This document shows, piece by piece, positions 40,306 to 59,306 of a stretch of 64,000 nt of DNA (positions within the stretch are counted from its first letter, which is position 1; every line of letters starts with the position of its first letter). A program made the translations under genes and the position numbers. The notes below the pieces were generated by a model that saw only the letters and a program-made list of their open reading frames with translations, was not told where the DNA came from and searched no databases. The stretch comes from Pseudomonas nicosulfuronedens (GTDB lineage Bacteria > Pseudomonadota > Gammaproteobacteria > Pseudomonadales > Pseudomonadaceae). The stretch lies in NCBI RefSeq assembly GCF_005877905.1, contig NZ_SWDV01000001.1, positions 124,001 through 188,000 on the forward strand, read 5' to 3'.

Positions 40306-40320
40306 GGAGGGCTCGCCTGC

Positions 40321-40983: not shown

Positions 40984-40985
40984 CG

Positions 40986-41771: not shown

Positions 41772-41798
41772 GTTGTGCTCCTGTCTGCGCGCCGCGCG

Positions 41799-42527: not shown

Positions 42528-42536
42528 GGCGAGTCC

Positions 42537-43724
42537 TTAGATGGCCGAGAACAGGACCTGGGTGAGTTCCTTGTCGGTGGTCATCACCTTGGTGTTCGCC
42601 TGGTAGTTGCGCTGGCCTTCCATGAGGCCCACCAGTTGCTGGGTGATGTCGACGTTGGAACCTTCCAGGTTGCCGGCCGACAGCGAGCCGAACTGGCCGA
42701 TGCCGGGCACGCCGATCAGCGGGGCGCCGGACGCGGAGGTCTCGGTCCAGGCGGTGCCGCTCTGGTTCTGCAGGCCGCCGGTGTTGATGAAGTTCGCCAG
42801 GGCGACCTGGCCCTGCAGCATGCGCTGGCCGTTGCTGTAGTTGACGTAGACCTTGCCGTCGTTCTCCACCGCGATACCGGTCTGCTCGCCGGCGGCGTAG
42901 CCGGTGGTGCGGTTGGTGGTGACGACGAAGTCCGAGCCGTACTGGCTGGTGCCGGTGTAGTCCAGCGCGATGTTCATCGGATCGACGCCCGGCAGGGTGA
43001 AGCTCACCGGTACGGAAGCGATCGGCGAGGACAGCGAGCCGTCCGGGGCGAAGGTCAGCGACTGGGTGGCGCCGACGGCATTGCCGTCCACCGCGTAGTG
43101 CGCGTCCCAGGTGTTGGTGCCGGTCAGCACGAAGTACTGGGTCAGGGTGTGTTCCTTGCCCTGGGAATCGTAGATCTTGCTGGTGTAGGTGGAGTTGTAG
43201 GTCTCCACCTTCTGCGGATCGAACGGCGCGACGCTCGGCACCTTCTCGTTGGAGTCGAGGTTGGCGACGAACTCCAGCTTGTCGGTGGCCTTGGCCGGCA
43301 GGTTGGCGGTCTTCACCTGCAGGTCGGAGACGGTGCCCACCAGCAGGTTGCCGGCAGCGTCGGTCGGGTAGCCCTGCAGGCGCTGGCCGGTGGCGTTGAT
43401 CAGGTAGTTGGCGTTGTCCTGGCTGAACACGCCGGCACGGGTGTACTGGGTGTCGCCGTTGCCGCTCTTGACCACGAAGAAGCCGCCGCCGGAGATGGCC
43501 AGGTCCAGTGCACGATTGGTCGACACCAGCGAACCGCCCTGGCTGATGCTCTGGGTGGTGCCGGCGACTTCCACGCCCATACCCTTGCTGTCGGCATAGA
43601 CGCTGCCGAACTCGGTGCGCGAGGACTTGAAGCCGACGGTACCGGAGTTGGCGATGTTGTTGCTGATGGTGTCCAGCTGCTGGGTGACGGCGTTCAGGCC
43701 GGTCAGGGCGATGTTGAAGCTCAT
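42537..43724 (-). CDS. flgE: Flagellar hook protein FlgE
   Basis: A 395-residue hook protein with the N-terminal motif (TGLNAVTQQLDTISNNIANS then GTVGFKSS) and C-terminal GLMEGQRNYQANTKVMTTDK. The central variable domain is short compared with polar hook proteins (usually more than 400 residues), suiting a lateral-type hook. Confidence 0.95.
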   Translation of the reverse strand: MSFNIALTGLNAVTQQLDTISNNIANSGTVGFKSSRTEFGSVYADSKGMGVEVAGTTQSISQGGSLVSTNRALDLAISGGGFFVVKSGNGDTQYTRAGVFSQDNANYLINATGQRLQGYPTDAAGNLLVGTVSDLQVKTANLPAKATDKLEFVANLDSNEKVPSVAPFDPQKVETYNSTYTSKIYDSQGKEHTLTQYFVLTGTNTWDAHYAVDGNAVGATQSLTFAPDGSLSSPIASVPVSFTLPGVDPMNIALDYTGTSQYGSDFVVTTNRTTGYAAGEQTGIAVENDGKVYVNYSNGQRMLQGQVALANFINTGGLQNQSGTAWTETSASGAPLIGVPGIGQFGSLSAGNLEGSNVDITQQLVGLMEGQRNYQANTKVMTTDKELTQVLFSAI

Positions 43725-43759
43725 GGCGTTAGCTCATCCTAGGAGGGGGGAACAGGCGC

Positions 43760-44431
43760 TCAGGCGGCCTGGCCCTGACTGAATTCGACGATCTTGTAGA
43801 AGGGCACCGAGCCTGCGCCCTCGACTTCCAGCACCGGGCCGTCGGCGCTGACGCGAACGTTGTGCACCAGGCCGGAAACCTCGATGCCCGGCGTCTCGCC
43901 GCTCTCGGTCTTGACCGCCAGGCTGTACTTGCCGGGCTTCAGGCCGAGCGCTTCGGGGTCCACGGTGAAGGGCACGGAGCCGGCTTCCTGCGGGCCGAGA
44001 GTGATGTCGGTGCGCACGCCGTTGGCGTCGGTGAGCTGCAGCACGGTGGTGGCCGAGGCGTGCTCCAGGGTGATCTGCCCGCTGACCTTGTCGCCGTCCA
44101 GCTGCAGGCTGTCGGCGCTGACCTTCACTTCCTGGCCGACCAGGCCGGCAGCGGTGAGGGTCTGCAGGTTGTCCATCAGCACCAGGTTGTTCTGCTGCAG
44201 GGTGGTCATGTTCTGCATGCTCTTCACCTGCGCCATCGCCGAGTACTGGTTGATGAACTCGGTGCTGTCCACCGGCTTCGTCGGGTCCTGGTACTGCACC
44301 TGGGCGACCAGCAGGGTGATGAAGCTGTTCTCCATGTCGGTCAGCTCGCCGAGGTTGACCGCCTGCTTGGGCGTGTCGGACGAAGTGCTGCTGGTGCCGC
44401 TGGAGCTGGTGTCGTTGTTGACCGTGCTCAT
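43760..44431 (-). CDS. flgD: Flagellar hook-capping protein FlgD
   Basis: A 223-residue scaffolding cap. Residues 25-75 contain the FlgD motif (NSFITLLVAQVQYQDPTKPV, DSTEFINQYSAM), followed by FlgD Tudor-like and Ig-like domains (about 90-205). The cap is discarded after hook assembly. It overlaps the flgC stop by 1 base. Confidence 0.94.
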   Translation of the reverse strand: MSTVNNDTSSSGTSSTSSDTPKQAVNLGELTDMENSFITLLVAQVQYQDPTKPVDSTEFINQYSAMAQVKSMQNMTTLQQNNLVLMDNLQTLTAAGLVGQEVKVSADSLQLDGDKVSGQITLEHASATTVLQLTDANGVRTDITLGPQEAGSVPFTVDPEALGLKPGKYSLAVKTESGETPGIEVSGLVHNVRVSADGPVLEVEGAGSVPFYKIVEFSQGQAA

Positions 44432-44859
44432 CAGGCGTCTCCCAGTTTCAACAGGCTGGACTGCATGCTCTTCACGCGGTTGAGCACTTCCACGCCGGTC
44501 TCGAAACTGCGGGTGGCGGACATCATGTCGGTCATTTCCTCGATCTCGTTGACGTCGGGGTAGTAGACGTAGCCGGTGGCATCGGCCAGCGGGCTGCCGG
44601 GCTCGTAGCGGCGTTGCGGCGAGCGGCCGGAGGTCACCACGTCGAGCACCTGCACATGGGCCCCGCCCATGCCGGCGCCACGGGTGAGCTGGTCGTTCTC
44701 GTAGACGGCGGCGAACATCGGCTTGCGCGCCTGGTACACGGTGTCCGGGCTGTTGGCGGCAGAGTCGGCGTTGGCCAGGTTGCTGGCCACGGTGTTCAGG
44801 CGCACGGTCTGTGCGTTCATCGACGAGCCGGCGATGCGGTAGATGGAATCGAATGCCAT
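44431..44859 (-). CDS. flgC: Flagellar proximal rod protein FlgC
   Basis: A 142-residue axial protein with N-terminal SSMNAQTVRLNTVASNLANA and C-terminal MMSATRSFETGVEVLNRVKS. It is exported through the flagellar apparatus to form the rod. Confidence 0.94.
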   Translation of the reverse strand: MAFDSIYRIAGSSMNAQTVRLNTVASNLANADSAANSPDTVYQARKPMFAAVYENDQLTRGAGMGGAHVQVLDVVTSGRSPQRRYEPGSPLADATGYVYYPDVNEIEEMTDMMSATRSFETGVEVLNRVKSMQSSLLKLGDA

Positions 44860-44863
44860 GGCG

Positions 44864-45229
44864 TCAGCGTCCCTCGATGGCCTGCTTGAGGCCGCGGAAT
44901 TTCAGGGTCAGGAAGGTCAGGCTGGTCTGGAAATCCATCGCGTTGCGCGAGAACTCCGCCTGCTCGGTGGACAGCTCCACGCTGTTGCCGTCCTGCGAGG
45001 GCTGGTTGGGGATGCGGTACTTCAGGTCCGGGCGCGCGGCGCTGGTGCTGGCCAGCAGGACGCTGGAGGTGTCCTGGCGCTGCATCTCGGCGGCGAAATC
45101 GATGTCCCGTGCCTTGAAGCCGGGGGTGTCTTCGTTGGCCAGGTTGGAGGCCAGGATTTCGCTGCGCTGCATGTGCAGCGAGAGGGCTCTCTCGTGGATA
45201 CCCAGGGTGTCGTCAAACCGTATACTCAT
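44864..45229 (-). CDS. flgB: Flagellar proximal rod protein FlgB
   Basis: A 121-residue rod protein with N-terminal MSIRFDDTLGIHERALSLH and RSEILASNLANEDTPGFKA. It is the first gene of the flgB-to-lafW operon. The start ATG 45229 is preferred because the longer frame adds 19 basic residues before it and overlaps the probable promoter. Confidence 0.93.
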   Translation of the reverse strand: MSIRFDDTLGIHERALSLHMQRSEILASNLANEDTPGFKARDIDFAAEMQRQDTSSVLLASTSAARPDLKYRIPNQPSQDGNSVELSTEQAEFSRNAMDFQTSLTFLTLKFRGLKQAIEGR

Positions 45230-45281
45230 TCGCGCAACCCTCTCTCGTCGTTCGGCCGTCTTTCGGTGTGCGCAGCGACAG

Positions 45282-45297
45282 AGCACAAAGCATGCCC
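45282..45297 (-). promoter_or_regulatory. Candidate sigma54 promoter of the flgB operon
   Basis: The minus strand reads GGGCATGCTTTGTGCT, with the GG and GC doublets 10 bases apart as required (compare TGGCACGNNNNTTGCT; four mismatches). Transcription would start near 45271, about 42 bases before the flgB ATG. It is weaker than the fliD site. Confidence 0.42.
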
Positions 45298-45315
45298 ATC
45301 CTGGAATATCGCTTC

Positions 45316-46113
45316 ATGTCGTTGATTTACAAGGCTTTACTCAAAGAGCAGAGCAGTGCGTGCAACGCGGCTTTTCCGCTTTCGACGCACCGCGCGCCAG
45401 GATGCGGAAAGGCCCTTTCCGCCTGCTTCCTCCTGCTGCTTCCCGCTCTCGCGCACGCCCAGGATGCACGCGTGCAACTCGACGCCGCCGCGCAGCAGCA
45501 GGTCGCCGCCGAGCTGAAGGAAGCCGCACGCAAGGCCGGCTGGAAAGGCATGACTTTCACGGTGAACAACAACCTGCCCAACAGCCTGGGCAAACTCACC
45601 GCCTGCCCTGGCGGCCCGCAGCTGCGCATACTCGAAGCCCCCGCTGCGGTTACCGCGCGACGACGCTTCGAAGCCTCCTGCGCGGGCCAATCCGGCTGGC
45701 CGGTGACCTTTATCAGCCAACCCACCGTGTACCTGCCAACGGTGGTCGCCAGCGGCGAGATCGAGCGCGGCCAGACGCTGGACAGGGCGCAGCTCAAGCT
45801 CGCACCGGTGGAAATCGGCAAGAGTTCGCGGGGTTACTTCACCGACATCGCCGAGGTGGCCGGCAAGACGGCCCGCCGCCGCATCCGCGCCGACCAGCCG
45901 CTGACGCCTGCGCTGCTCGATGGCGCGATGCTGGTGCGTCGCGGCCAGCAGGTGAAGATCGTCGCCTGCCAGGACGGCATCCAGGCCAGCGCCGTCGGCG
46001 AGGCAATGGCCAACGGCAAGCAGGACGAAGTGATCCGTGTAAGGAACCTGCGCAGCCAGAAGGTCATCGAGGCGAAGGTGACGGCATCAGGCGAGGTGAG
46101 CAGCATCTTCTGA
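45316..46113 (+). CDS. flgA: Flagellar P-ring assembly chaperone FlgA
   Basis: Periplasmic chaperone that guides FlgI into the P-ring. From ATG 45316 it is 265 residues with a long n-region then a hydrophobic stretch (ALSACFLLLLPALAHA) ending at a likely signal cleavage site. The C-terminal SAF domain (LPTVVASGEIERGQTLDRAQ then ARRRIRADQPLTPALL; GQQVKIVACQDGIQASAVG) is conserved. Earlier in-frame starts (45268 GTG, 45292 ATG) are possible; none has a good ribosome-binding site. It is divergent from flgB. Confidence 0.88.
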   Translation: MSLIYKALLKEQSSACNAAFPLSTHRAPGCGKALSACFLLLLPALAHAQDARVQLDAAAQQQVAAELKEAARKAGWKGMTFTVNNNLPNSLGKLTACPGGPQLRILEAPAAVTARRRFEASCAGQSGWPVTFISQPTVYLPTVVASGEIERGQTLDRAQLKLAPVEIGKSSRGYFTDIAEVAGKTARRRIRADQPLTPALLDGAMLVRRGQQVKIVACQDGIQASAVGEAMANGKQDEVIRVRNLRSQKVIEAKVTASGEVSSIF

Positions 46114-46204: not shown

Positions 46205-47266
46205 TCAGCCGAGCGGTTGCGAAGCGACGCTGCCCTGAGAGCCCGGCAGCACAATAACGGGATCGGGCGAAGCCGCCGGCGCGGCAAAGGTGGTCACCTC
46301 CACCAGCCGCCGCGCGTGGATGCTCGGCGCGGGCAGCACGGACGCATCCAGCGGCGCCTCGCGGAAGCAGCGCAGGTGATTGGCGACCATGTCGTAGCCG
46401 GAAAGATGGCTGAAGGCAATCCCTCCGGAGAAGCGTGGGTTGACGTCCATCAGCAACGCCTCGCCGTCTTGCACGAGGAATTCCACGTTGATGCAGCCGT
46501 TCACGCCCAGCACGCGGGCGACCTGACCGGCCATCTCGACCAGCCGAACGTCGGCCAGCATTCGTACGGTCAGACCCGCCCCGGTCGGCGTGCGCACCAG
46601 CTCCTGGCGCGCCATGGCCGCCCAGGCTCCACTGCTCTGCTGGCGCACCACGTCCACCACGCAGACATCGCCCGGCAGCAGCGGCTGCACGATGTAGTCG
46701 CGGTCCGAGAAGCGCCGGCGCACGTAGTGCAGGAAATCCGCATCGCGCACCTGCATCAAGCCTTCGCAATTGCGCCCGTCACGTGGCTTGGCGATCAGCG
46801 GCAGGTCCAGCCCTGCCATGGGCAGATCCTCCAGGCGCCAGGTGGGAATGGTGCGGATCAGCGGATCATTACCGAAGGCCTGGTGCACCCGCCACTTGTC
46901 GCGGGCAACACGAATGGTCTCCAGCGGCTGCATGCACAGCGTGATGCCGCGTTCGGTAAAGGCTTCGTGGTGCAGCGCGAAGGCATCGACCTCGGGGTCG
47001 ATCAGCGGCAGCACATGGGTCACCTGCTCGGCCTCGCAGATCCTGAGGATGCGTTCCACATACTCGGTAACATTTCTCGCCGCCGGAACCCGATGGAAGG
47101 TATCCAGCAAGGCCGAGGTGGCGCACCAGTCGCGGGGCTGGGTATTGGTCCCCACCACCCGCGCGCCCCAGTGCTCGCGTAACGATGCGATCACCGATTC
47201 GGCAGAGTACGAGCCGATGGCGGTAACCAGGCAGGTGAACGGAAAACTACCCGCCGAGCCGCTCAA
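46205..47266 (-). CDS. ATP-grasp domain protein (CarB-like ligase)
   Basis: A 353-residue soluble protein. The N-terminal part (about 10-110) is a Rossmann-like pre-ATP-grasp domain (TAIGSYSAESVIASLREHWG; VLPLIDPEVDAF), followed by an ATP-grasp region (about 115-310, LPLIAKPRDGRNCEG; NVEFLVQDGEALLMDVNPRFSGG). Such enzymes join a carboxylate to an amine or thiol via an acyl phosphate. The start appears to be TTG, as no ATG or GTG is available in frame before the homology begins. Substrate unknown. Confidence 0.78.
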   Translation of the reverse strand: MSGSAGSFPFTCLVTAIGSYSAESVIASLREHWGARVVGTNTQPRDWCATSALLDTFHRVPAARNVTEYVERILRICEAEQVTHVLPLIDPEVDAFALHHEAFTERGITLCMQPLETIRVARDKWRVHQAFGNDPLIRTIPTWRLEDLPMAGLDLPLIAKPRDGRNCEGLMQVRDADFLHYVRRRFSDRDYIVQPLLPGDVCVVDVVRQQSSGAWAAMARQELVRTPTGAGLTVRMLADVRLVEMAGQVARVLGVNGCINVEFLVQDGEALLMDVNPRFSGGIAFSHLSGYDMVANHLRCFREAPLDASVLPAPSIHARRLVEVTTFAAPAASPDPVIVLPGSQGSVASQPLG

Positions 47267-47453
47267 GACGCGGCCCCGCCGGTGACTCGCGGAAAGAGAG
47301 TGTCCATTGCTTCATGGCCCCGTAAAGATTCGACTGCTTACGCCCAAACACTCCGTTGCCATACGACACTTCCGAGGGAATAGAGCAAGCGTAGCTGCGA
47401 ACCGGCGCTCCGGAGTGGTTACCCCGGAGCGCTGGGGGGATTTCCGACGGGGC

Positions 47454-48383
47454 TCAGGTCCACCAGTAGCGGACGAAGTGGAAGAACACCGGAGCGGCGA
47501 AGCACACCGAATCCAGGCGGTCGAGCATGCCGCCGTGGCCTTCGATCATGTGGCCCCAGTCCTTCACCCCGCGGTCGCGCTTGATCGCCGACATCACCAG
47601 CCCGCCGAAGAAGCCGAGGATGTTGATCATCAGGGCGATCAGCAGCGCCTGCCAGAAGGTGAAGGGCGTGATCCACCACAGCGCGCCACCGATCAGCGTG
47701 GCCAGCGCCACACCGCCGATGAAGCCTTCGAGGGTCTTGGACGGCGACAGGTTCGGCGCGATCTTGCGCTTGCCCATGAGCTTGCCGCAGACGTACTGCA
47801 GCACGTCGGACAGCTGCACGACGATCACCAGGAAGGCGATCAGCAGCAGGTTGCGTCCTTCGTAGCCGGCGATCTCCAGGGTCAGCAGCGCCGGCACGTA
47901 GGAGATGCAGAACACCGCCAGCATCAGCGCCCACTGCACCTTCGAAGCTCGCTCGAGGAAGTGCTTGGAGTCGCCACCCAGCGAGGCGAGGATCGGCAGC
48001 AGCAGGAACACGTAGACCGGGATGAAGATGGAGAACAGCCCGTACCAGCCGATGCCGATCAGCAGGTACTGCATCGGCAGCACGAAGTAGAACGCCGCCA
48101 CCAGCGCCGGATAGTCGCTGCGGCGCGTCGGCATCAGGGTGAGGAATTCGCGCAGGGCGTAGAACGAGACCCCGTAGAAGAGCAGGATCACTGCCCAGTA
48201 GCCGAGGGCGAAGGCGCAGCCGATCACCGCGACCATCACCCACCAGGCGTTGATCCGCGCGTTGAGGTTGTCGATCACCGCGTGGGGGCCGGGCGGCGCC
48301 CGCCAGCGCAGCACTGCGCCCACCAACGAGGCGAGGACCAGGATGGCGCCGATACCACCGAAGAGCAGCCAGGTCTGGTTCAT
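47454..48383 (-). CDS. CDP-diacylglycerol synthase-like protein (CdsA/YnbB type)
   Basis: A 309-residue membrane protein with about eight helices and the C-terminal cytidylyltransferase signature region (NLSPSKTLEGFIGGVALAT; KDWGHMIEGHGGMLDRLDS), the two parts of the CDP-DAG synthase motif. It would make CDP-diacylglycerol from phosphatidate and CTP. E. coli YnbB has the same size and fold. It is the last gene of the lipid operon; its ATG is 2 bases beyond the acyltransferase stop, so the genes are tightly linked. Confidence 0.88.
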   Translation of the reverse strand: MNQTWLLFGGIGAILVLASLVGAVLRWRAPPGPHAVIDNLNARINAWWVMVAVIGCAFALGYWAVILLFYGVSFYALREFLTLMPTRRSDYPALVAAFYFVLPMQYLLIGIGWYGLFSIFIPVYVFLLLPILASLGGDSKHFLERASKVQWALMLAVFCISYVPALLTLEIAGYEGRNLLLIAFLVIVVQLSDVLQYVCGKLMGKRKIAPNLSPSKTLEGFIGGVALATLIGGALWWITPFTFWQALLIALMINILGFFGGLVMSAIKRDRGVKDWGHMIEGHGGMLDRLDSVCFAAPVFFHFVRYWWT

Positions 48384-48384
48384 C

Positions 48385-49014
48385 TCAGCGACCCTCCGGC
48401 GCGGCAAGCCTGAGCAGCGCCTCGCGGGCACGTTCGAGGAAGGCTTCCTTGGCCTCGCCCTCCTCCACCACCAGCGGTGCGCCGAAGCTCAGGGTGCACA
48501 GCAGCGGCAACGGTAGCGCGCGGCCCTTGGGCATCACACGGCTTAGGTTGTCCAGCCACACCGGCACCAGCTCCACCTGCGGATGGGCCTTGGACAGGTG
48601 GAAGATGCCGCTCTTGAACGGCAGCAGGCGCACTTCCTCGTCGAGGTTTCGGGTGCCTTCGGGGAAGAGGATCAGCGAGTCGCCATCGGCCAGGGCGCGC
48701 TCCACCGGCTCCAGTGGGTTGCCGCCCTCGGCGCCGCGGGTGCGGTCGATCAGCACGCCATGGAACACGCGGTTGATGATGAAGCCACGCAGGCCGCCCT
48801 TGCCCCAGTAGTCCATGCCCGCCACCGGCCGCGTACGCGAGCGCAGCTCCGGCGGCAGCGAGGCCCAGAGCAGGACGAAATCGCCATGGCTGCTGTGATT
48901 GGCGTAGTAGATGCGCTGCGCCGGGGTCGGAGTGGTACCGATCCACAGGCTGCGCAGACCGGTCACCGCACGGGCGCCGGCGATGATGGCGTAGGCGCAG
49001 AGTCTTTCCAGCAT
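48385..49014 (-). CDS. PlsC-like 1-acylglycerol-3-phosphate acyltransferase
   Basis: A 209-residue acyltransferase with the catalytic HX4D motif (H40-SSHG-D45) and the FPEGTR substrate motif (117-122). It transfers an acyl chain to lysophosphatidate or a related lysolipid. It stands between the CdsA-like gene and a small membrane-protein gene, so it probably supplies the phosphatidate for the operon's pathway. The start ATG 49014 is preferred over a longer frame with a Cys-rich leader. Confidence 0.88.
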   Translation of the reverse strand: MLERLCAYAIIAGARAVTGLRSLWIGTTPTPAQRIYYANHSSHGDFVLLWASLPPELRSRTRPVAGMDYWGKGGLRGFIINRVFHGVLIDRTRGAEGGNPLEPVERALADGDSLILFPEGTRNLDEEVRLLPFKSGIFHLSKAHPQVELVPVWLDNLSRVMPKGRALPLPLLCTLSFGAPLVVEEGEAKEAFLERAREALLRLAAPEGR

Positions 49015-49028
49015 TGCGAGTAGGTTCC

Positions 49029-49475
49029 TCAGGATTGGAAGGTCAGGGTGATCAGGCACAGCAGCGCAACGAGCCACTGCACCGCACACAGCACTACCTG
49101 CCGACGCAGGAGCTTCAGCGCGCCACGGCTGCGCTCGCTCCAGGTGCGACCGGACATTTCTTCCGGCACACCCACATAGGTGGCCAGTGCGTCATCCAGC
49201 TGACGGGTTTTTTCCGGCAGCGCCTCGCCGGCATTGGCCATGGCCTCGAACAGGTCCGCATCCAGCGCTACACGCATGGCATAGAACTTCTGCACCAGCC
49301 CGAGCAGCACCAGCAATGCCATGCTCAGGCTGAACGCCAGGGTGGCACTGGCCATCAGCACGCCGTAGAAGCCGAGCGCCAGCGCCAGCACGGTCAGCGC
49401 CGAGGACAGGCCATTGAGGCTGCTGCCGCGCCGCAACAGGCTGGCCACCAGGATCAGGCCCGGATCAACCGACAT
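49029..49475 (-). CDS. Small membrane protein of the lipid operon
   Basis: A 148-residue protein with hydrophobic helices at about 22-42, 45-65 and 125-145 and a soluble middle part (about 70-120). Not recognised as a known family. It overlaps the end of the phosphatase gene by 11 bases, so it belongs to the operon. E. coli ynbABCD has no obvious counterpart. Confidence 0.7.
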   Translation of the reverse strand: MSVDPGLILVASLLRRGSSLNGLSSALTVLALALGFYGVLMASATLAFSLSMALLVLLGLVQKFYAMRVALDADLFEAMANAGEALPEKTRQLDDALATYVGVPEEMSGRTWSERSRGALKLLRRQVVLCAVQWLVALLCLITLTFQS

Positions 49476-50814
49476 GACTCACCTCCTGTGACAGGTTCGG
49501 CTGGCCGGCGATCTGCGCCAGCACCGCCAGTTGTTCGGCCTTCAGCACCACCTGCGGACGGGCGCGGCGAATCTGCGCCAGCGCATCCTCGAGCGTGGCC
49601 GCACGGCCGGATATCAGCAGCCACGCCGCCACCAGCGTGGCGCTGCGCGAGTAGCCCAGTGCGCAGCACACCAGCAACGGGCCTTCGGCGTGCATTCGCT
49701 GGATCAGGTCCGCGCCTTGCCGGCATTGCTCGACACTCGGAGCTACCAGGTCGAGCAGCGGCAGGCATTCGTAGCGACGGGTCAGCGCGGTGCAGGGCAG
49801 CTCGGCGCACAGGTCGAGGATTGACAGGCTCGGCAGGTGCCGGGGCTTGTACCAGTCCGGCAGGCGCCCGAGCCAGAGACCCGGCAGCACTTCGTCCGGC
49901 TGCGGATGGCGGCGCGTCCACCAGCACGCGTTGAGCCACGCGCCCAACCAGTAGGGCGCCAGCAACCAGGAGACCGCCACGGAATGGCGACCGTCCAGGC
50001 GCTTCTGGAACCCCACCGTGCCGATCCCGAGGTAGCAGAGTGCAACCAGCGCCAGGGATACAGCCGGCCAGCCCAACCAGAGCCACAGGCCGCCGCCGGC
50101 CAGCGCCAGCACCAGGCACAGCAGCGCCCCGACACCATAGATTGCCGCCAGCCGACGCCGCTGCGGATCAGCGCTGAGGCTCCACGCCTGCAGCGGCGAG
50201 CGCACCTCCCGCGGCCACAGCCAGACACAGAGGAAGCCCAGCAGCGCACCGGTCGGCACGTCGATGAAATGGTGTTGCCAGGTGGTCAGCACCGACAGGC
50301 CGATCAGCGCGAACCAGCCGTGCAGCAACCAGCGCCATGCTCCGCTGGCGTAGCGACCATAGGCGACCCAGAGGATCACCAGCAGGGCGATATGCAGCGA
50401 GGGCGCCTGGTTGAACGGCTTGTCGAAACCCATCAACAGGTCGAACAGCACGCCGAAGAAGCCCTCCTGCATCGGTCGCTCGAAGCTGAATCGCAGCGGG
50501 AACAGCAGGAAGCAGGCTACCGCGACGACCTGTGCGGTGAGCAGGCGCAAGGCGTGGCAATCCAGCCCGCGCTTGGTGCGCGGCAGCAGGAAGGACAGCC
50601 CGTACAGCAGGTCGATGGACCAGTACGGGATGATCGTCCACGGCCACAGCGGCGTGCCGCGCTCCCAGTCGAACACCAGCACGCCGACCGATTCGCGTTG
50701 CGCCGCTACCCAGTTGGCGAAGCCGTAGCTGAGGAAGAAGAACGGCCCGAGGAACAGCAGCCAGATGACCGCGCGCCGCAGGACACCGGGATCACGCGCT
50801 GGCAGCGGCGTCAT
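49465..50814 (-). CDS. PAP2 phosphatase fused to dual-specificity phosphatase (YnbD-like)
   Basis: A 449-residue protein. The N-terminal membrane domain (about 1-300) has PAP2-like motifs (KPFNQAPSLHIALL; TTWQHHFIDVPTG). The C-terminal part (about 310-440) is a dual-specificity protein/lipid phosphatase with the C-X5-R loop (VCCALGYSRSA). The arrangement and length match E. coli YnbD (430 residues). It could dephosphorylate a phosphatidylglycerophosphate-like or phosphoinositide-like intermediate made by the upstream transferase. Its ATG overlaps the stop of the preceding gene by 1 base. Confidence 0.88.
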   Translation of the reverse strand: MTPLPARDPGVLRRAVIWLLFLGPFFFLSYGFANWVAAQRESVGVLVFDWERGTPLWPWTIIPYWSIDLLYGLSFLLPRTKRGLDCHALRLLTAQVVAVACFLLFPLRFSFERPMQEGFFGVLFDLLMGFDKPFNQAPSLHIALLVILWVAYGRYASGAWRWLLHGWFALIGLSVLTTWQHHFIDVPTGALLGFLCVWLWPREVRSPLQAWSLSADPQRRRLAAIYGVGALLCLVLALAGGGLWLWLGWPAVSLALVALCYLGIGTVGFQKRLDGRHSVAVSWLLAPYWLGAWLNACWWTRRHPQPDEVLPGLWLGRLPDWYKPRHLPSLSILDLCAELPCTALTRRYECLPLLDLVAPSVEQCRQGADLIQRMHAEGPLLVCCALGYSRSATLVAAWLLISGRAATLEDALAQIRRARPQVVLKAEQLAVLAQIAGQPNLSQEVSHVG

Positions 50815-52571
50815 CAGCTGCGCTCCCGGCGAGCCAGGGAGACGGTGAAGATGCCGTCCTCGTCGATGCGCTGGGCCAGTTTGCGGAAGCCGGCAGAAGC
50901 CACCAGTTGGTCCATCTCCAGTTGCGTGCGGCGGCGCATTACCCAGGCCTGACCGGCACGGTGGCTGGTCAGGGCACGGGCGATCAGTTCGAGTTGCGGG
51001 TGCCAGGGCTGCCCGGTGTAGATCAGGTAGCCGCCCTCTTCCACCGCCTCGCCCAGGCCGGCCAGCGAGCCGCTGACCATGGCGTTGTCGGCGAACAGCT
51101 CATAGAGACCGGAGACCACCGCCAGCGTCGGTTTCGGCTCCACGGCGGCGAGGTCGGCGCCATCGAAGGCGTCGCCCTGCACGAAACGGGCGCGCTCCTT
51201 CAGGCCCAGGCGCTCGATCAGCGCCGAGCCTTCGCGCACGTTCAGCTCGCTGTAGTCGCGCAGCAGTACGCTTTCGGGCAGCGCCTCGAGGCCTTGCAGC
51301 GCTTCGAGGATGTAGCGCCCGTGGCCGGCGGCAATGTCGAGGATGCGTACTTCGCGGCCCTGCTCGCGCAGGCTGGCCATGGCCAGACGGAGCAATTCCT
51401 CGATGTTGACCTTGCGCTGGCGGATGCCGCGCCAGCCGGCGGACTCCAGGTAGGTGCGGTCGATCATTCGCCCCACCGGCCCCGCGCCGGCGGGCTGGTT
51501 GCGGTAGACGTAGTCCAGGGTGCTGCCGGAGTCGAAGCCGGTCTGGAAGCCAAGATTGATGCCGTCGGAAAGCAACCGGCCGAGGCGCATGTTGGCGCGC
51601 GTGGCGCGCCAGTAGAGATCGCGAAGCGACCAGGTGGGCAATGGCGTCGCCAGGGCTTCCGCCTCGGCGCAGGTGTAGCCGAAACGGTCGGCATTGCGCA
51701 GGTCCGCACGCTCGGGTTCACGGACGAAGCACTCGAGGATGAAGCGCCGCGCCCGCGTGGTCGCCTGCTCGCGATTCAGTTCGCCGAGGGTGTCGTGGAA
51801 GAAGCCGGGCAGGATGTGCAGCTCCTTGCGCGCCGTGCCGAGGTTGTCGAAGAAGCGTTGCTGCGGCTTGCGGTGCACCACGAAATCGGAGCCGGAGATC
51901 AGCAGTTGTGTCGGCACCTGGATCGCCTGGGCGTCGGCTACAACGCGGTCGGCCGCCTCATACAGGCCCAACAGCACGTTCACTGAAATGGCCTTGGCGA
52001 TCAGCGGGTCGCTGTCGTACGAGGTGATGCGCTCGGGATCGTGGGTGAGGAATTTCGCCTTCACATAGCTGTTGACGAAGAAGTTGCCGCGCCACCAGCG
52101 CGCCAGCTTCAGGCCCGGCCGGGCGAAGGGCACGTAGAGCTTGACCTTGAATGCCGGCGAGGCGAGCACCAGGCTGCGGATCGGCGGCGCGTAGTCATGC
52201 ACCCAGGTGGAGGCAACCACCGCGCCGACACTCTGCGCCACCACCGCCATCTCGCTGATGGCGATGCCGTAGGTCGAAGCGATGTGCTCGACGAAGGTCT
52301 GCACGTCGCGCACGCTGGTGCCGAAACTCGGGCTGTCGCCGCGCGCGCCAGGTGACTGGCCGTGGCCGCGGGCATCCCAGGCGAAAACGTCGAAGCCGGG
52401 CAGCTCGAGCTCGTCGGCCAGGTGGCCGATGCGCCCGGAATGCTCATGGCCACGATGGAACAGCAATACGGCGCGGCGCGGCTCCTCGCTGCCGGCAGCA
52501 GCCGGCCAGTGGCGGTAGAACAGCTCGACGCCGTCATGGGTAACGAAGTGGTGATTCGAAGACTCGCGCAT
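50814..52571 (-). CDS. Alpha/beta hydrolase fused to SAM-dependent methyltransferase (YnbC-like)
   Basis: A 585-residue fusion, the length of E. coli YnbC. The N-terminal lysophospholipase-like hydrolase (about 1-290) has oxyanion FHRGHEHSG, DARGHG and nucleophile VVAQSVGAV. The C-terminal class I methyltransferase (about 390-580) has the SAM-binding motif VRILDIAAGHGRYI. It may deacylate and methylate a lipid. ATG 52571 (MRESSNHHFVTHDG) has AGAGGAAG upstream and agrees with the YnbC start, so the earlier ATG 52622 is rejected. Confidence 0.9.
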   Translation of the reverse strand: MRESSNHHFVTHDGVELFYRHWPAAAGSEEPRRAVLLFHRGHEHSGRIGHLADELELPGFDVFAWDARGHGQSPGARGDSPSFGTSVRDVQTFVEHIASTYGIAISEMAVVAQSVGAVVASTWVHDYAPPIRSLVLASPAFKVKLYVPFARPGLKLARWWRGNFFVNSYVKAKFLTHDPERITSYDSDPLIAKAISVNVLLGLYEAADRVVADAQAIQVPTQLLISGSDFVVHRKPQQRFFDNLGTARKELHILPGFFHDTLGELNREQATTRARRFILECFVREPERADLRNADRFGYTCAEAEALATPLPTWSLRDLYWRATRANMRLGRLLSDGINLGFQTGFDSGSTLDYVYRNQPAGAGPVGRMIDRTYLESAGWRGIRQRKVNIEELLRLAMASLREQGREVRILDIAAGHGRYILEALQGLEALPESVLLRDYSELNVREGSALIERLGLKERARFVQGDAFDGADLAAVEPKPTLAVVSGLYELFADNAMVSGSLAGLGEAVEEGGYLIYTGQPWHPQLELIARALTSHRAGQAWVMRRRTQLEMDQLVASAGFRKLAQRIDEDGIFTVSLARRERS

Positions 52572-52634
52572 AACTTCCTCTGTTCGATGGCTTGCGGGAC
52601 TGTCCGGTCCCGGTCCTGACATGGCGGCCCTGGC

Positions 52635-53255
52635 TCAGCCGGCCGTTTGTTCCTTCTGCTCGGCCAGCCCCTGGCGCACCCGGTTGACGATAGTCAGCAC
52701 CAGCAGCAGTGCCAGCAGCACCAGCAACGGGTCGAGCCAGCTCAGCGGCAACAGTCCGCTGGCCACACCGGCACCGAAGACACCGAAGCACAGCGCGCGG
52801 TCGCTCTTTCCCATGGGGCCGTCGTAGCGCCGCGAAGCCCCCACCATCACCCCGAGCACGCCGGCGTACTCGCTGATGACTGCCAGCAGGACCACCAGCA
52901 CCACCAGCGCCGGCATCACGCCCGGCAGCAGGGCGAACGGCAGGTACAGCGCGCTGTCGGCGATCACGTCGGTGAGCTCGTTGAGGTAGGCGCCCAGCTT
53001 CGACTGCTGGCCGAATTCACGGGCAAGCATGCCGTCCATGGCGTTGAGTGCCATGCGCAGGAACATCCACAGGGGGATCAGCAGGAATATCCAGGCGTGG
53101 CCGGCCAGCAGCGCGACGGTGAGCGCCACCAGCAGCGAAAGGCCGCAGGCGGCCAGCGTCACCTGGTTGGCCGTGACGCCGCGCTCGTACAGGCGGGTGA
53201 CCAGGGGGCGGAGCAGGTTCTGGAAACGGGACTTGAGCTGGTAGACGGAGATCAT
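52635..53255 (-). CDS. CDP-alcohol phosphatidyltransferase family protein (YnbA-like)
   Basis: A 206-residue membrane protein with about six helices and the CDP-alcohol phosphotransferase signature shape (N71-AM-D74-G-ML-A-R79, then G88-AYL-N92-ELT-D96). Asn replaces the first and third metal-binding aspartates of the usual D-xx-DG-xx-AR-x8-G-xxx-D-xxx-D pattern. It would transfer phosphatidyl from CDP-diacylglycerol to an unknown alcohol. Similar in size and motif to E. coli YnbA. It is the first gene of the lipid operon. Confidence 0.88.
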   Translation of the reverse strand: MISVYQLKSRFQNLLRPLVTRLYERGVTANQVTLAACGLSLLVALTVALLAGHAWIFLLIPLWMFLRMALNAMDGMLAREFGQQSKLGAYLNELTDVIADSALYLPFALLPGVMPALVVLVVLLAVISEYAGVLGVMVGASRRYDGPMGKSDRALCFGVFGAGVASGLLPLSWLDPLLVLLALLLVLTIVNRVRQGLAEQKEQTAG

Positions 53256-53575: not shown

Positions 53576-54457
53576 ATGGCCTTGTCGATTCAAACCAACT
53601 ACTCCTCCCTGATCACCCAGACCAACCTGGGCAAGACCAACAACCTGCTGGCCACCAACCAGCAGCGCCTGGGCACCGGCCTGCGCATCAACTCCGCTGC
53701 CGACGACGCCGCCGGCCTGCAGATCGCCACCCGCCTGAACGCCCAGTCCCGCGGCATGGACGTGGCCATGCGCAACACCAGCGACGCCATCTCCCTGATG
53801 CAGACCGCCGACGGCGCCTTCAGCGAACTGACCGACATCACCCAGCGCATGAAGGACCTGTCCACCCAGGCCGCCAACGGCACCAACACCACCGACGACG
53901 GCAAGGCCCTGTCCGCCGAGTTCAACGAACTGGGCAAGGAACTGAAGAACATCATTGCCAACACCAAGTTCGGTGGCGATGCGCTGTTCGGCGTCGATGG
54001 CGCCAGCGGCAAGTTCGGCGCCACCGGTGGCGTGACCTTCCAGATCGGTTCGGACAAGGCCGAGACCCTGAACGTCGACGTCACCACTGAACTGAAAGCC
54101 GTAACCGACGCCTTCACCGCCCTGACCAGCCAGTTCCAGGCCACCAGCGCTGACGGCAACGAGCTGGAAACCATCACTGGCGCCAACGGCTCCATCGACC
54201 TGGCCAACGATGCCCTGGACGCCATCGGCAGCCTGCGCGCGCAGTTCGGTGCGAACATCAACCGCCTGCAGCACACCTCCAACAACCTGGCCAACATGAA
54301 GGACAACACCGACCTGTCCAAGGGCCGCATCATGGACGCCGACTTCGCCGTCGAAAGCGCCAACATGAGCAAGAACTCCATGCTGATGCAGTCGGGCATC
54401 TCCATGCTCAAGCAAGCTGGCCAGATGCCCAGCATGATCATGGGCCTGCTGGGCTAA
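53576..54457 (+). CDS. Flagellin (LafA-like, short)
   Basis: A 293-residue filament protein with conserved D0/D1 ends (N-terminus MALSIQTNYSSLITQTNLGK, then LGTGLRINSAADDAAGLQI; C-terminus NMSKNSMLMQSGISMLKQAG, then MPSMIMGLLG) and a very short variable centre. That length is typical of lateral flagellins and short for polar Pseudomonas flagellins, which usually exceed 390 residues. It stands alone with a promoter region upstream and a hairpin downstream. Confidence 0.95.
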   Translation: MALSIQTNYSSLITQTNLGKTNNLLATNQQRLGTGLRINSAADDAAGLQIATRLNAQSRGMDVAMRNTSDAISLMQTADGAFSELTDITQRMKDLSTQAANGTNTTDDGKALSAEFNELGKELKNIIANTKFGGDALFGVDGASGKFGATGGVTFQIGSDKAETLNVDVTTELKAVTDAFTALTSQFQATSADGNELETITGANGSIDLANDALDAIGSLRAQFGANINRLQHTSNNLANMKDNTDLSKGRIMDADFAVESANMSKNSMLMQSGISMLKQAGQMPSMIMGLLG

Positions 54458-54505
54458 GCCCCAGCCAGCGTGAGGCGCCCCCCGCGTCGCGCGCCCTGAT
54501 CCGCC

Positions 54506-54529
54506 AACGCCCCGCCCCGGTGGGGCGTT
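54506..54529 (+). terminator. Hairpin terminator after flagellin
   Basis: An 8-bp stem (AACGCCCC and its complement) with an 8-base loop, beginning 49 bases after the flagellin stop. It is followed by TTGTGCTGT, a weak T-rich tail, so termination may be partial. Confidence 0.6.
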
Positions 54530-54621
54530 GTGCTGTCTGCGGGTACGCTGACAGACGGCGTTGCGACCACCGGTCGCGGCGCAGCCCCTCTACGCCAGTG
54601 GTTTCGAGGCTCGTGTGAAAA

Positions 54622-54656
54622 TTGCAAGCACGAGTGTGCAAAATTCAGAACTTGCA
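54622..54656 (+). promoter_or_regulatory. Three TTGCA/TGCAA boxes spaced at 15 bases before the lafZ-like gene
   Basis: TTGCA at 54622, TGCAA at 54637 and TTGCA at 54652, each 15 bases apart (about one and a half helix turns), 94 to 128 bases before the regulator's ATG. The regular spacing suggests an operator, possibly for autoregulation. Confidence 0.35.
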
Positions 54657-54749
54657 CCCACATTTTTCTGACGTCAAAATAATGCCTCTGCCTCCATGGA
54701 CAAATGGAGTTTCCCCGCGACCGTCAAGGGAGCGGCTCGCAAGGGCAAG

Positions 54750-55589
54750 ATGAACACACTCACTTCCACGCCAACGGACAGTCGGCCGATCGCCTGCCTG
54801 ACCCTCCGCACCGGGCGTTCCGATTGCGTCGCGCAGTTCTATCCCGCGCTCTATCAACTCGACCTCGACCGTGACGGCCAGGTGGAGCGTATCGACCTGG
54901 GCTTTTCCGGCAGCCGCGTGCTCGAACGCCTGCTGCAGAGTCCGGGAGACGTGGTGGCCCGCGATGAACTGCTGACCCATGCGTGGTCCGATCGGGTGGT
55001 CGGCCAGGGCAGCCTGAACCAGCAGATCTATACCCTGCGCCAGGTGCTGGCGGACGAGAAGCAGCGGCAGATCATCCAGACGCTGCCGCGCCGCGGCTAC
55101 ATGTTCAACCCGCAGTACCTGATCGACCAGGCCAGCGAGCCGGACGCGGAGGTCGCCGACGCGACTCCGGAAGTCATTCCGCTGGAGAGCGTCGCTCCCT
55201 CCCCCGGACTGCGACCGCCGAATCTACGGCGCCTGAAACTCGCCGCCGCGAGCCTCTGCATCCTCGGCCTGCTGGTCCTCTCCGGCGCCATCTACTACAC
55301 CCAGGTCCGCAGTCCGGTCCTGACCGCCGAACAGAATGTCGGCTCCCTGCAGATCACCTACGTCGAAGACAACGAACAGGACCTGCAACGGCTGATCAGC
55401 AACACTCGCCCCCTGGCCCATCAACTGGCCGACCTGGCCAGCCGCCCCATCGGCCTCATGCTGCACATGACCTCGGGCTTCTATGAGCTGGTCTGCGTGC
55501 AACCCGAAGGCAATTCCAACTGGCTGCTGATCCATGAGAGCCAGGTCGCCCGGACTCCCCAGGAGCAGTTGCGCAAGTGCCTGAACTGA
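54750..55589 (+). CDS. LafZ/CadC-like membrane transcription regulator
   Basis: A 279-residue one-component regulator. An OmpR/PhoB-type winged-helix DNA-binding domain (about 28-122; SRVLERLLQSPGDVVARDEL, then RQIIQTLPRRGYMFNP) is followed by a linker, one membrane span (about 162-182) and a periplasmic domain of about 95 residues. This ToxR/CadC layout and location beside the lateral flagellin match LafZ. ATG 54750 has AAGGG closely upstream; the ATG at 54696 lacks a ribosome-binding site. Confidence 0.78.
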   Translation: MNTLTSTPTDSRPIACLTLRTGRSDCVAQFYPALYQLDLDRDGQVERIDLGFSGSRVLERLLQSPGDVVARDELLTHAWSDRVVGQGSLNQQIYTLRQVLADEKQRQIIQTLPRRGYMFNPQYLIDQASEPDAEVADATPEVIPLESVAPSPGLRPPNLRRLKLAAASLCILGLLVLSGAIYYTQVRSPVLTAEQNVGSLQITYVEDNEQDLQRLISNTRPLAHQLADLASRPIGLMLHMTSGFYELVCVQPEGNSNWLLIHESQVARTPQEQLRKCLN

Positions 55590-56065
55590 ACCTACGCCGC
55601 CAGGTCGGCGCGGCCCGCCGCTGCCTGGTGGTTTCGCTGTTCGGCGTCGCCTGCCTGACCCTGGCGCTGGGCATGCTGTGGAGGCACGCCCACAGCACCT
55701 CGGCCATCGATGGCCGCTACGCCTCTTCCGGGCAGGTGGTGCTGGGCAATGGCAAGGTGCTGGAAATCGCCCAGACCACCATGTTCCACGAGGGGCGTTT
55801 CTACTCGATGATCCAGCAGGACGCCAACATCCTCGAAGTTTCCGGCCTGGTCGGCAGCGACCTGGGCGGGCGTTTCCAGCTGCAGGTGGAGGAGAACAGC
55901 ATCAGCAACCTGCAGGCCGACAGCGGCCTGGACAGCGAACTGATCTTCAACCTGCTCTATGGCCGCCAGCGCGGCGCCCGCATCACCCTCGAACCCCTGG
56001 GCGGCTGCCTCTACGGCGTGGAGACACGCCAGGTTTTCTGTCCGCGCCATCCGCGCAACCGCTGA
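55577..56065 (+). CDS. Small single-span membrane protein cotranscribed with lafZ-like regulator
   Basis: A 162-residue protein starting at GTG inside the end of the regulator gene (13-base overlap). It has one N-terminal membrane span (about 17-35) then a soluble periplasmic-type domain with two Cys near the end (GGCLYGVETRQVFCP). The arrangement recalls ToxR/ToxS pairs, in which the small partner stabilises the regulator. No sequence family is recognised, so this role is inferred from layout only. Confidence 0.7.
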   Translation: MPELNLRRQVGAARRCLVVSLFGVACLTLALGMLWRHAHSTSAIDGRYASSGQVVLGNGKVLEIAQTTMFHEGRFYSMIQQDANILEVSGLVGSDLGGRFQLQVEENSISNLQADSGLDSELIFNLLYGRQRGARITLEPLGGCLYGVETRQVFCPRHPRNR

Positions 56066-56070
56066 GCCCC

Positions 56071-57123
56071 TCACAGCTTCAACGTCGGCTCCGCCTTCGC
56101 CGCGGGAGCTGGTGCCTCGACTGCCGCTGACGTGGGCGCCTGTGCCTGCTGTGGCTGTGGCTGTGGCTGTGGCTGTGGCTGTGGCTCGACGAGTTTCGCG
56201 CCCGACGCCGAATAGTGCACCTGGGCATAACTCTCGCCGAAGATTTCCCGGTACAGACTCTCCGCGCGCTGGGTCAGCAGGAGGATCTCGATCCGCCGGT
56301 TGGCGCCGTTCTCCGGGTCTTCCGGGCGCAGCGGCATGACGTCGGCCTGGGCCGCCACCTGCAGCACATGCGCGGCCGGCAGGCCACTGTCGACCATCAC
56401 GTTGCGTGCGCGCAGGGCGCGGTCGCCGGAGAGGTTCCAGTTGTTGTAACCATCGGGACGGCGGTACTGCACGGCGTCGGTATGGCCACTCAAGATCAGC
56501 TTGTTCTGCACCTTCGCCAGCACACCGGACAACGCGCCAAGCAGGGTCTGGAAATGCGGGTCGAGGGTGGCCTGGCCACGGGCGAACATGAAGCGCTGCT
56601 GGTCGTCCTTGATCAGGATACGCAGCCCCTGCGGGACCACGGTCACCTCGATGTTGGCCAGCGCATCGACCTTGCCGGACACCTCGCGGATCAACTCGGC
56701 CAGCTCGCGCAGGTCTTCGTTGCTGTCGTACTGGCGGCCCTCGCCGTCCTGCTGCACGCTCGAATCCTTCGCCTGCTCGCCAGCCTTGCCTTGCTTACCA
56801 GAGTCGAGTGCGAGCTGCGGCGCGGGCTTTTCCGGGGTCTTGACCGGCTGCGGCATGCCATCCAGCTCGATGGGCGTGCGGCTGGCACCGTCGAACACGC
56901 CGGCACCGCCATCCACCACCGGGTTGGCGTCCTGGTCGCCCACCGCCACCGGCTGCGGCTCGGTCTGCGGGTGAACGATCCACAGCACCATGAACAGCGC
57001 CATCATCGCCAGGGTGAAGTCGGCGAAGGCTACCTTCCAGGCGCCGCCGTGCTCGTCATCGTGGCCCTTCTTGCTGCGGCGCTTGATGATGACTTCGCTG
57101 TGCTTGTCAGCGCGTTTCTTCAT
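56071..57123 (-). CDS. motB: Flagellar stator protein MotB (LafU-like)
   Basis: A 350-residue stator protein. It has one membrane span with the proton-binding aspartate (FADFTLAMMALFMVLWIV, D35), a plug-linker, and an OmpA-like peptidoglycan-binding domain (about 215-300, LSGHTDAVQYRRPDGYNNW; NRRIEILL). The C-terminus is longer than usual, with a (PQ)n run encoded by a hexanucleotide repeat. Asp in the span is standard for both ion types. It overlaps motA by 4 bases. Confidence 0.93.
   Translation of the reverse strand: MKKRADKHSEVIIKRRSKKGHDDEHGGAWKVAFADFTLAMMALFMVLWIVHPQTEPQPVAVGDQDANPVVDGGAGVFDGASRTPIELDGMPQPVKTPEKPAPQLALDSGKQGKAGEQAKDSSVQQDGEGRQYDSNEDLRELAELIREVSGKVDALANIEVTVVPQGLRILIKDDQQRFMFARGQATLDPHFQTLLGALSGVLAKVQNKLILSGHTDAVQYRRPDGYNNWNLSGDRALRARNVMVDSGLPAAHVLQVAAQADVMPLRPEDPENGANRRIEILLLTQRAESLYREIFGESYAQVHYSASGAKLVEPQPQPQPQPQPQQAQAPTSAAVEAPAPAAKAEPTLKL
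56151..56186. repeat. Tandem GTGGCT hexanucleotide repeat in motB
   Basis: Six perfect copies of the hexamer GTGGCT (plus strand), encoding consecutive Pro-Gln dipeptides in the C-terminal tail of MotB. Copy-number change would alter tail length without breaking the frame. Confidence 0.95.
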
Positions 57124-57992: not shown

Positions 57993-58005
57993 AGGTCAGG
58001 ATTCT

Positions 58006-58767: not shown

Positions 58768-58773
58768 GACGGC

Positions 58774-59262: not shown

Positions 59263-59306
59263 GGGGTTTCTCGAAAAATCCTGTGGGAGTGCGGGCCGCT
59301 GGCGGC

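What the first reader, a model, noticed from the sequence alone, without database searches (positions are those of the whole stretch)
46205..53255. A ynbABCD-like phospholipid operon nested inside a flagellar locus
The operon encodes a CDP-alcohol phosphatidyltransferase, a hydrolase-methyltransferase fusion, a PAP2-DSP phosphatase fusion, a small membrane protein, PlsC and a CdsA-like enzyme. These match the sizes and domain fusions of E. coli YnbA, YnbC, YnbD and YnbB, a set whose product is unknown, and add PlsC and a novel membrane protein. It contains acylation, CDP-activation, head-group transfer, phosphate removal, methylation and deacylation steps: a self-contained route to an unidentified, possibly methylated phospholipid. 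It separates flgA from flagellin.
Basis: partly seen in the sequence, partly recalled or inferred. Interest (0 to 1): 0.75.

Follow-up and report, generated by a model that had tools for sequence, protein, structure and literature searches.

The report
Conserved phospholipid operon with odd synthase
This is an intact copy of a widespread but unexplained bacterial set of membrane-lipid genes, whose central head-group enzyme lacks two of the four acidic residues that its family normally uses to hold the catalytic metals.

Summary
The six genes are real and tightly packed in a Pseudomonas nitroreducens-group genome: ynbA, ynbC, ynbD, a small membrane protein ("X"), plsC, ynbB. PlsC and X are not additions: all six genes stand in this order in 78 of 80 Pseudomonas loci, so E. 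coli K-12 ynbABCD is a reduced, reordered version. The flagellar setting is local (6 of 101 loci) and the ATP-grasp gene incidental (3 of 101).

New here: YnbA has Asn at the first and third "absolutely conserved" aspartates of the CDP-alcohol phosphotransferase signature, in 99 of 99 aligned rows (96 distinct sequences) and in single homologs from Cyanobacteriota and Fusobacteriota. Of 398 Pseudomonadota genomes 36 hold YnbA; 26 of these hold YnbC and 25 full-length YnbD. In 8 of the other 10, YnbB and PlsC flank YnbA, so A-B-P may be the core.

Most likely it makes, then modifies, a minor phospholipid (PlsC, YnbB, YnbA, then YnbC and YnbD). The head group is unidentified; home-made inositol is unlikely (inositol-phosphate synthase in 0 of 26 genomes). 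All function is inferred.

The parts
52635..53255 (-). ynbA-type CDP-alcohol phosphatidyltransferase, 206 aa; Asn71 and Asn92 in place of signature Asp 1 and Asp 3; Asp74 and Asp96 kept
   Evidence: Pfam CDP-OH_P_transf 31.8 bits, cut-off 22; residues in 99 of 99 rows, 96 distinct
50814..52622 (-). ynbC-type protein: monoglyceride-lipase-like hydrolase fused to Methyltransf_20; likely true start near 52571 (585 aa)
   Evidence: Pfam 494.8 and 247 bits; Ser, Asp, His triad and the SAM-motif Asp each in 101 of 101 rows; PDB profile match to monoacylglycerol lipases 1.9e-21
49465..50814 (-). ynbD-type protein: PAP2-like membrane domain, two further helices, then a dual-specificity-phosphatase domain, 449 aa
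   Evidence: Pfam DSPc 36.4 bits over cut-off 33.5; PAP2_3 17.1 bits, below its cut-off of 27; AlphaFold model pLDDT 82.2; catalytic residues 99 of 99 rows
49029..49475 (-). X: 148-aa small membrane protein, directly after ynbD
   Evidence: no Pfam or NCBIfam match; found by tblastn in 80 of 80 Pseudomonas loci and by profile in 20 of 23 chosen diverse loci
48385..49014 (-). PlsC-type acyltransferase, 209 aa from ATG near 49014
   Evidence: Pfam Acyltransferase 59.7 bits, cut-off 23; HX4D His and Asp in 95 of 96 rows, one row has X
47454..48383 (-). ynbB-type CdsA paralogue, 309 aa from ATG near 48383
   Evidence: Pfam CTP_transf_1 249 bits, cut-off 24; a second CTP_transf_1 gene on contig C12 of the same genome

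Best explanation
A dedicated set for making and then modifying a minor membrane phospholipid. PlsC acylates a lysolipid to phosphatidic acid (or a like lipid); YnbB activates it with CTP to CDP-diacylglycerol; YnbA moves the phosphatidyl group onto a small, ubiquitous, probably phosphorylated polyol, using an active site with two Asn in place of metal-binding Asp. These three are the likely core. YnbC then methylates and/or trims the product (monoglyceride-lipase-like domain plus Methyltransf_20), and YnbD dephosphorylates or processes it, its DSP domain on the cytoplasmic side and its PAP2 domain on the periplasmic side. Shown by sequence: the domains, the catalytic residues, the gene order and its conservation. 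Shown by others for E. coli only: YnbB makes CDP-DAG in vitro (review PMC7018664, passages). Inferred: every other reaction, their order, the sidedness, the acceptor and the final product.
For: Domains. Six-gene order in 78 of 80 Pseudomonas loci, in a Shinella replicon, and all six positions on a Citrobacter plasmid in another order, X there by position only. Co-occurrence in 398 genomes: YnbA in 36, YnbC-type in 26, full-length YnbD in 25, nested (the genomes are related, so the Fisher values are not independent tests). YnbB and PlsC beside YnbA in 8 of 10 genomes without YnbC. Catalytic residues of hydrolase, methyltransferase, DSP and PlsC kept. YnbA's best named relatives are archaetidylinositol-phosphate synthase (67.6 bits) and PIP synthase (48.6 bits), which use a phosphorylated acceptor (PMC4634129 passages). 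YnbA Lys150, Arg153 and Arg192 are invariant near where PIP synthases bind the acceptor phosphate. The DSP part of YnbD also matches a 540-568-aa protein in 13 genomes, consistent with the NCBIfam model PRK12361, which I recall as a DSP-diacylglycerol-kinase fusion.
Against: Two of four signature Asp are missing, so activity of YnbA cannot be assumed. The PIP-synthase and AIPS scores are far below their cut-offs (170 and 180). The Arg153 alignment is one column off the PIP-synthase Arg. Not every locus has every gene: of 20 fetched genome loci P and B are absent locally from 3 (L121, L122, L127), D from 2 (L127, L128; G202 has a D about 43 kb away). Fusobacterium shows only C-A-B within 7 kb. 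The published ynbB knockout had no change in MPIase or growth (PMC6362211). No acceptor-making gene was found beside the operon.
Confidence: 0.5

Rival explanations
1. A remodelling or repair cycle, not new synthesis: YnbC strips acyl chains from damaged or foreign lipids, PlsC re-acylates, and YnbB, YnbA and YnbD recycle the rest.
For: Lipase-like domain with intact triad and an acyltransferase in one operon; Moraxella plasmid neighbourhood with a patatin-like phospholipase.
Against: A-B-P without any hydrolase in 8 of 10 YnbC-less genomes; the Pseudanabaena locus has the methyltransferase without the hydrolase domain.
Confidence: 0.17
2. A backup for MPIase synthesis: YnbB makes GlcNAc-PP-DAG, the other genes being loosely related.
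For: YnbB overproduction raised MPIase in E. coli and YnbB could not replace CdsA for phospholipids (PMC6362211 and review PMC7018664, passages).
Against: MPIase was not significantly changed in the ynbB knockout (same paper); it leaves YnbA, YnbC, YnbD, X and PlsC, conserved together, without a role.
Confidence: 0.12
3. A prokaryotic inositol-lipid pathway: YnbA is a PIP synthase and the YnbD phosphatase makes PI.
For: Closest named families are inositol-phosphate acceptor enzymes, with a phosphatase in the operon.
Against: Inositol-1-phosphate synthase (PF07994) in 0 of 26 genomes that carry the operon; the control search rang in 5 of 14 named genomes, E. coli not among them. Scores below the equivalog cut-offs. 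Import of inositol phosphate is not excluded.
Confidence: 0.06
4. YnbA is not a transferase but a CDP-DAG- or lipid-binding pseudoenzyme that organises YnbB, PlsC and YnbC.
For: Two of four metal-ligand Asp replaced in 99 of 99 rows.
Against: Asp 2, Asp 4 (the base) and the rest of the signature, with the GxxGKSDR motif and Arg192, are invariant in the same rows, which suggests catalysis under selection.
Confidence: 0.12

Closest known systems
E. coli K-12 ynbABCD
   Same: All four proteins have a clear counterpart with the same fusions (41-55% identity); YnbA of K-12 has the same two Asn.
   Different: K-12 order is A-B-C-D without PlsC or X; here A-C-D-X-P-B.
Class I CDP-alcohol phosphotransferases, nearest PIP and archaetidylinositol-phosphate synthases
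   Same: Pfam domain over cut-off; Asp 2, Asp 4 and the Gly/Ala/Arg positions kept in the aligned rows; PDB match to mycobacterial PIP synthase 7.5e-11 with the family profile.
   Different: Asp 1 and Asp 3 are Asn; an extra invariant NE and GxxGKSDRA; NCBIfam equivalog cut-offs not reached.
PAP2 lipid phosphatases (PgpB type)
   Same: Catalytic His141, His181 and Asp185 invariant.
   Different: The Lys of motif C1 is Pro and the Arg of motif C3 is Val, Thr or Ile in 99 of 99 rows; E. coli YnbD did not complement C55-PP or PGP phosphatase mutants (PMC7413402 passages).
CdsA / phosphatidate cytidylyltransferase
   Same: CTP_transf_1 249 bits.
   Different: 91.6 bits against the NCBIfam CdsA model, cut-off 385; a second CTP_transf_1 gene is elsewhere in the genome.

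Membership tests
ynb gene set (E. coli ynbABCD) | homologs of YnbA, YnbB, YnbC and YnbD together with the same fusions | tested here: met
ynb gene set (E. coli ynbABCD) | gene order A-B-C-D | tested here: not met
   order A-C-D-X-P-B in the window and in 78 of 80 Pseudomonas loci
class I CDP-alcohol phosphotransferase | CDP-OH_P_transf domain over Pfam's cut-off | tested here: met
   31.8 bits, cut-off 22
class I CDP-alcohol phosphotransferase | eight signature residues D1xxD2G1xxAR...G2xxxD3xxxD4 (PMC4634129) | tested here: not met
   D1 and D3 are Asn in 99 of 99 rows
class I CDP-alcohol phosphotransferase | transfer from a CDP-linked donor to an alcohol | not testable with these tools
   needs an enzyme assay
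PIP or archaetidylinositol-phosphate synthase | NCBIfam equivalog cut-off | tested here: not met
   48.6 against 170, 67.6 against 180 bits
PIP or archaetidylinositol-phosphate synthase | inositol-1-phosphate synthase in the genome | tested here: not met
   PF07994 in 0 of 26 genomes
PAP2 phosphatase | His and Asp of motifs C2 and C3 | tested here: met
   99 of 99 rows
PAP2 phosphatase | Lys of motif C1 and Arg of motif C3 | tested here: not met
   Pro, and Val, Thr or Ile, in 99 of 99 rows
dual-specificity phosphatase | CX5R loop | tested here: met
   Cys384 and Arg390 in 99 of 99 rows; DSPc over cut-off
PlsC acyltransferase | HX4D and Pfam domain | tested here: met
   95 of 96 rows, one row X; 59.7 bits; but TIGR00530 43.7 is below its cut-off of 102.95
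MPIase synthesis (YnbB role) | GlcNAc-PP-DAG synthesis | not testable with these tools
   literature for E. coli only (PMC6362211)

The most novel reading that the evidence does not exclude
YnbA founds a mechanistically distinct class of CDP-alcohol phosphotransferase, with the carboxylate metal site halved (NxxDG...GxxxNExxD) and a GxxGKSDRA acceptor motif, which together with its own CdsA and PlsC makes a phospholipid not yet described, in Pseudomonas, in most E. coli genomes and beyond; YnbC, YnbD and X are a separable module that methylates and processes it.
Probability: 0.4. Interest if true: 0.75.

Novelty: new variant of a known kind. Interest (0 to 1): 0.52.

Why it matters
A match to the four-gene set was found in 4579 of 5426 complete E. 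coli genomes (4242 with at least 80% of it covered), yet no product of the operon turned up in the literature searches made here. Lipid chemistry in the best-studied bacterium may be incomplete. The Asn-for-Asp exchange, constant across the family members seen here, makes a sharp, testable question of enzyme mechanism, and the A-B-P subset gives a three-gene system to test first.

Tried and rejected
Inositol lipid: sought inositol-1-phosphate synthase in the own genome and in all 26 genomes with Methyltransf_20, none found; kept as a low rival. Flagellar link: 6 of 101 loci; 77 upstream flanks fell into 10 clusters and 75 downstream flanks into 13, so the place is not conserved. ATP-grasp gene: 3 of 101. 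Phage origin: no YnbC match in 50,697 phage records. Head-group clue from neighbours in the ten YnbA-only genomes and in two lower-scoring loci: nothing that makes an acceptor was recognised; two loci have a homologous small membrane protein after PlsC, one with a VTT-domain match below cut-off. A YnbD-X pair rule: first thought strict, then weakened, because G202 has a YnbD away from the cluster and K-12 has D without X. Fold searches: the 50 rows shown for YnbD were all DSP-type matches, and nearly all of those for YnbC were hydrolases, so neither informed on the PAP2 or methyltransferase domain; the VIA library was not available. A PDB sequence search with the methyltransferase part gave only E 0.17 or worse. 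Promoter scan: no sigma-70-like site; terminator-like sites no more than in shuffles. Literature: one search found no paper with five of six domain names; some searches gave scattered mentions only.

Papers: passages only (find) of PMC6362211, PMC7018664, PMC8609368, PMC2435150, PMC13313352, PMC12871917, PMC7413402, PMC6506517, PMC4634129, PMC13031359, PMC10134817; others were seen as search listings only. Sato 2019 (BBRC) and Salscheider 2014 (NAR) were seen only as cited by those papers. The PROSITE-like motif of CdsA, the DSP-kinase nature of PRK12361 and the lysophospholipase L2 chemistry are recalled.
Full report
What is there. The window lies in a 6.68-Mb genome whose nearest loci are from the Pseudomonas nitroreducens group. 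On the minus strand, 53255 to 47454, six genes follow each other: ynbA, ynbC, ynbD, a 148-aa small membrane protein (X), plsC and ynbB. Neighbours overlap or lie within 14 bp. The ATP-grasp gene (46205-47266) follows but is found in only 3 of 101 loci.

Conservation. A scan for YnbC relatives confirmed 309 and kept the best 80, all Pseudomonas, so this set is not a random sample. All six genes stand in one order and on one strand in 78 of 80; L071 shows only C-D-X, and L080 is cut by its contig end. Six of 101 loci have flagellar genes beside the set, and flanking DNA of the Pseudomonas loci falls into many groups. PlsC and X are thus standard, and the flagellar place is particular to one clade.

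Spread. In 398 Pseudomonadota genomes Methyltransf_20 was found in 26. A YnbA profile found 36 genomes at E 3.7e-49 or better, with a wide gap to the next at 2.5e-20; these include all 26. A YnbD profile found 25 full-length proteins, all within the 26; G294 lacks it. The remaining 14 of its 39 genomes match only part of it: one the PAP2 part, 13 the DSP part. Of 20 loci fetched with YnbC, YnbA is in 20, YnbD in 18, PlsC and YnbB in 17. X was found by tblastn in 7 of those 20, and by profile in 20 of 23 diverse loci chosen from all sources, weakly in L121. In the ten genomes with YnbA but no Methyltransf_20, YnbB and PlsC lie beside YnbA in 8; L187 is a broken remnant of A joined to B; L188 has neither.

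Outside. Plasmid records (32 of 72,556 matched) include a Shinella replicon with all six, a Burkholderia plasmid with P and B turned round, a Citrobacter IncF plasmid with A-B-P-C-D and a small gene at the place of X beside a Tn3-family transposase and a recombinase, and an E. coli IncF plasmid on which only the start of D aligns. Pseudanabaena, a cyanobacterium, has A-B-P and the methyltransferase without the hydrolase domain. Fusobacterium vincentii has C-A-B only within 7 kb. A Kosakonia locus has a YnbC relative beside fatty-acid-synthesis genes and no YnbA within 7 kb. Phage records gave none.

The odd active site. [quoted passage not shown] in the M. tuberculosis enzyme all four Asp hold two metal ions (PMC6506517, passages). 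In YnbA positions 71 and 92, aligned with D1 and D3, are Asn in 99 of 99 rows, of which 96 are distinct; Asp74, Asp96, the Gly, Ala and Arg positions and a GxxGKSDR motif are kept. Most rows are Pseudomonas, so they are not independent. But both Asn are also in E. coli K-12, in the Shinella, Burkholderia, Citrobacter, E. coli-plasmid and Pseudanabaena copies, and in the Moraxella and Fusobacterium copies by eye. Of the ten YnbA-only genomes nine have both Asn; L188 has Ala and Asn. Two loci that scored only near 1e-20 (L189, L190) also show N and NE at these places, again with PlsC and CdsA. The three other family members of this genome have Asp at D1 and D2, two of them at all four. The arrangement is therefore old and selected rather than decay. 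Whether it uses fewer metals or other chemistry is not known.

The PAP2 part of YnbD also departs: His141, His181 and Asp185 are kept, but the Lys of motif C1 is Pro and the Arg of motif C3 is Val, Thr or Ile, in 99 of 99 rows. E. coli YnbD failed to replace C55-PP or PGP phosphatases (PMC7413402, passages). It may act on a phosphodiester or a special substrate; that is inference. The DSP loop is intact. The model of YnbD (pLDDT 82) has a helical membrane part followed by the DSP fold; that the two active sites face opposite sides of the membrane is inferred from loop charges read by eye.

Likely working. PlsC to phosphatidic acid, YnbB to CDP-DAG, YnbA to a phosphatidyl-polyol (phosphate), then YnbC and YnbD. 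The acceptor is unidentified. The nearest relatives of YnbA use inositol phosphate, but its synthase was found in 0 of 26 operon-bearing genomes. With no acceptor-making gene recognised near any copy, a common metabolite is likelier. PGP as product is disfavoured by the YnbD complementation result.

What is known. YnbB of E. [quoted passage not shown] A ynbC disruption raised polyphosphate in one E. coli background, but the Keio deletion did not (PMC2435150, passages). ynbB was a candidate in an ECA-PG transposon screen, then reported not needed for ECA-PG synthesis (PMC8609368, passages). ynbA appears in tables of c-di-GMP and stress studies (PMC13031359, PMC12871917, PMC10134817, passages). 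No paper found or 99 names the product of the operon or the Asn exchange; subscription journals are largely outside that library.

Verdict. The locus is an ordinary member of a known but unexplained gene set; its fuller gene content is standard for its genus. The interest lies in the YnbA active site and in the A-B-P core.

Noticed in passing
window 39187-46113 and 53576-60470; G000:C3:218906: The window's flagellar cluster appears to be a second flagellar system: the genome has two FlgI genes, one here and one on contig C3.
   Followed up: partly
window 46205-47266: ATP-grasp enzyme (PylC-like N-terminus, ATPgrasp_Ter match) between ynbB and flgA, found in 3 of 101 loci.
   Followed up: partly
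window 54696-55589: A regulator with an N-terminal Trans_reg_C DNA-binding domain stands after the flagellin gene; its homolog is beside flagellin in all six flagellar-context loci.
   Followed up: no
L140 2943-8668: A Kosakonia YnbC relative (37% identity) follows an acyl-carrier, ketosynthase, MaoC and FabG set, with no YnbA found within 7 kb: perhaps Methyltransf_20 acts on acyl chains there.
   Followed up: partly
L143 1-9418: A ynb set beside a Tn3-family transposase and recombinase on a Citrobacter IncF plasmid.
   Followed up: no
L125 10008-12161: A WG-repeat protein of 717 aa sits between ynbC and ynbD in one genome.
   Followed up: no
L182 858-1397 and L185 10536-11219: Homologous small membrane proteins (judged by eye) follow PlsC in two YnbA-only loci; one has a VTT-domain match just below cut-off.
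   Followed up: partly
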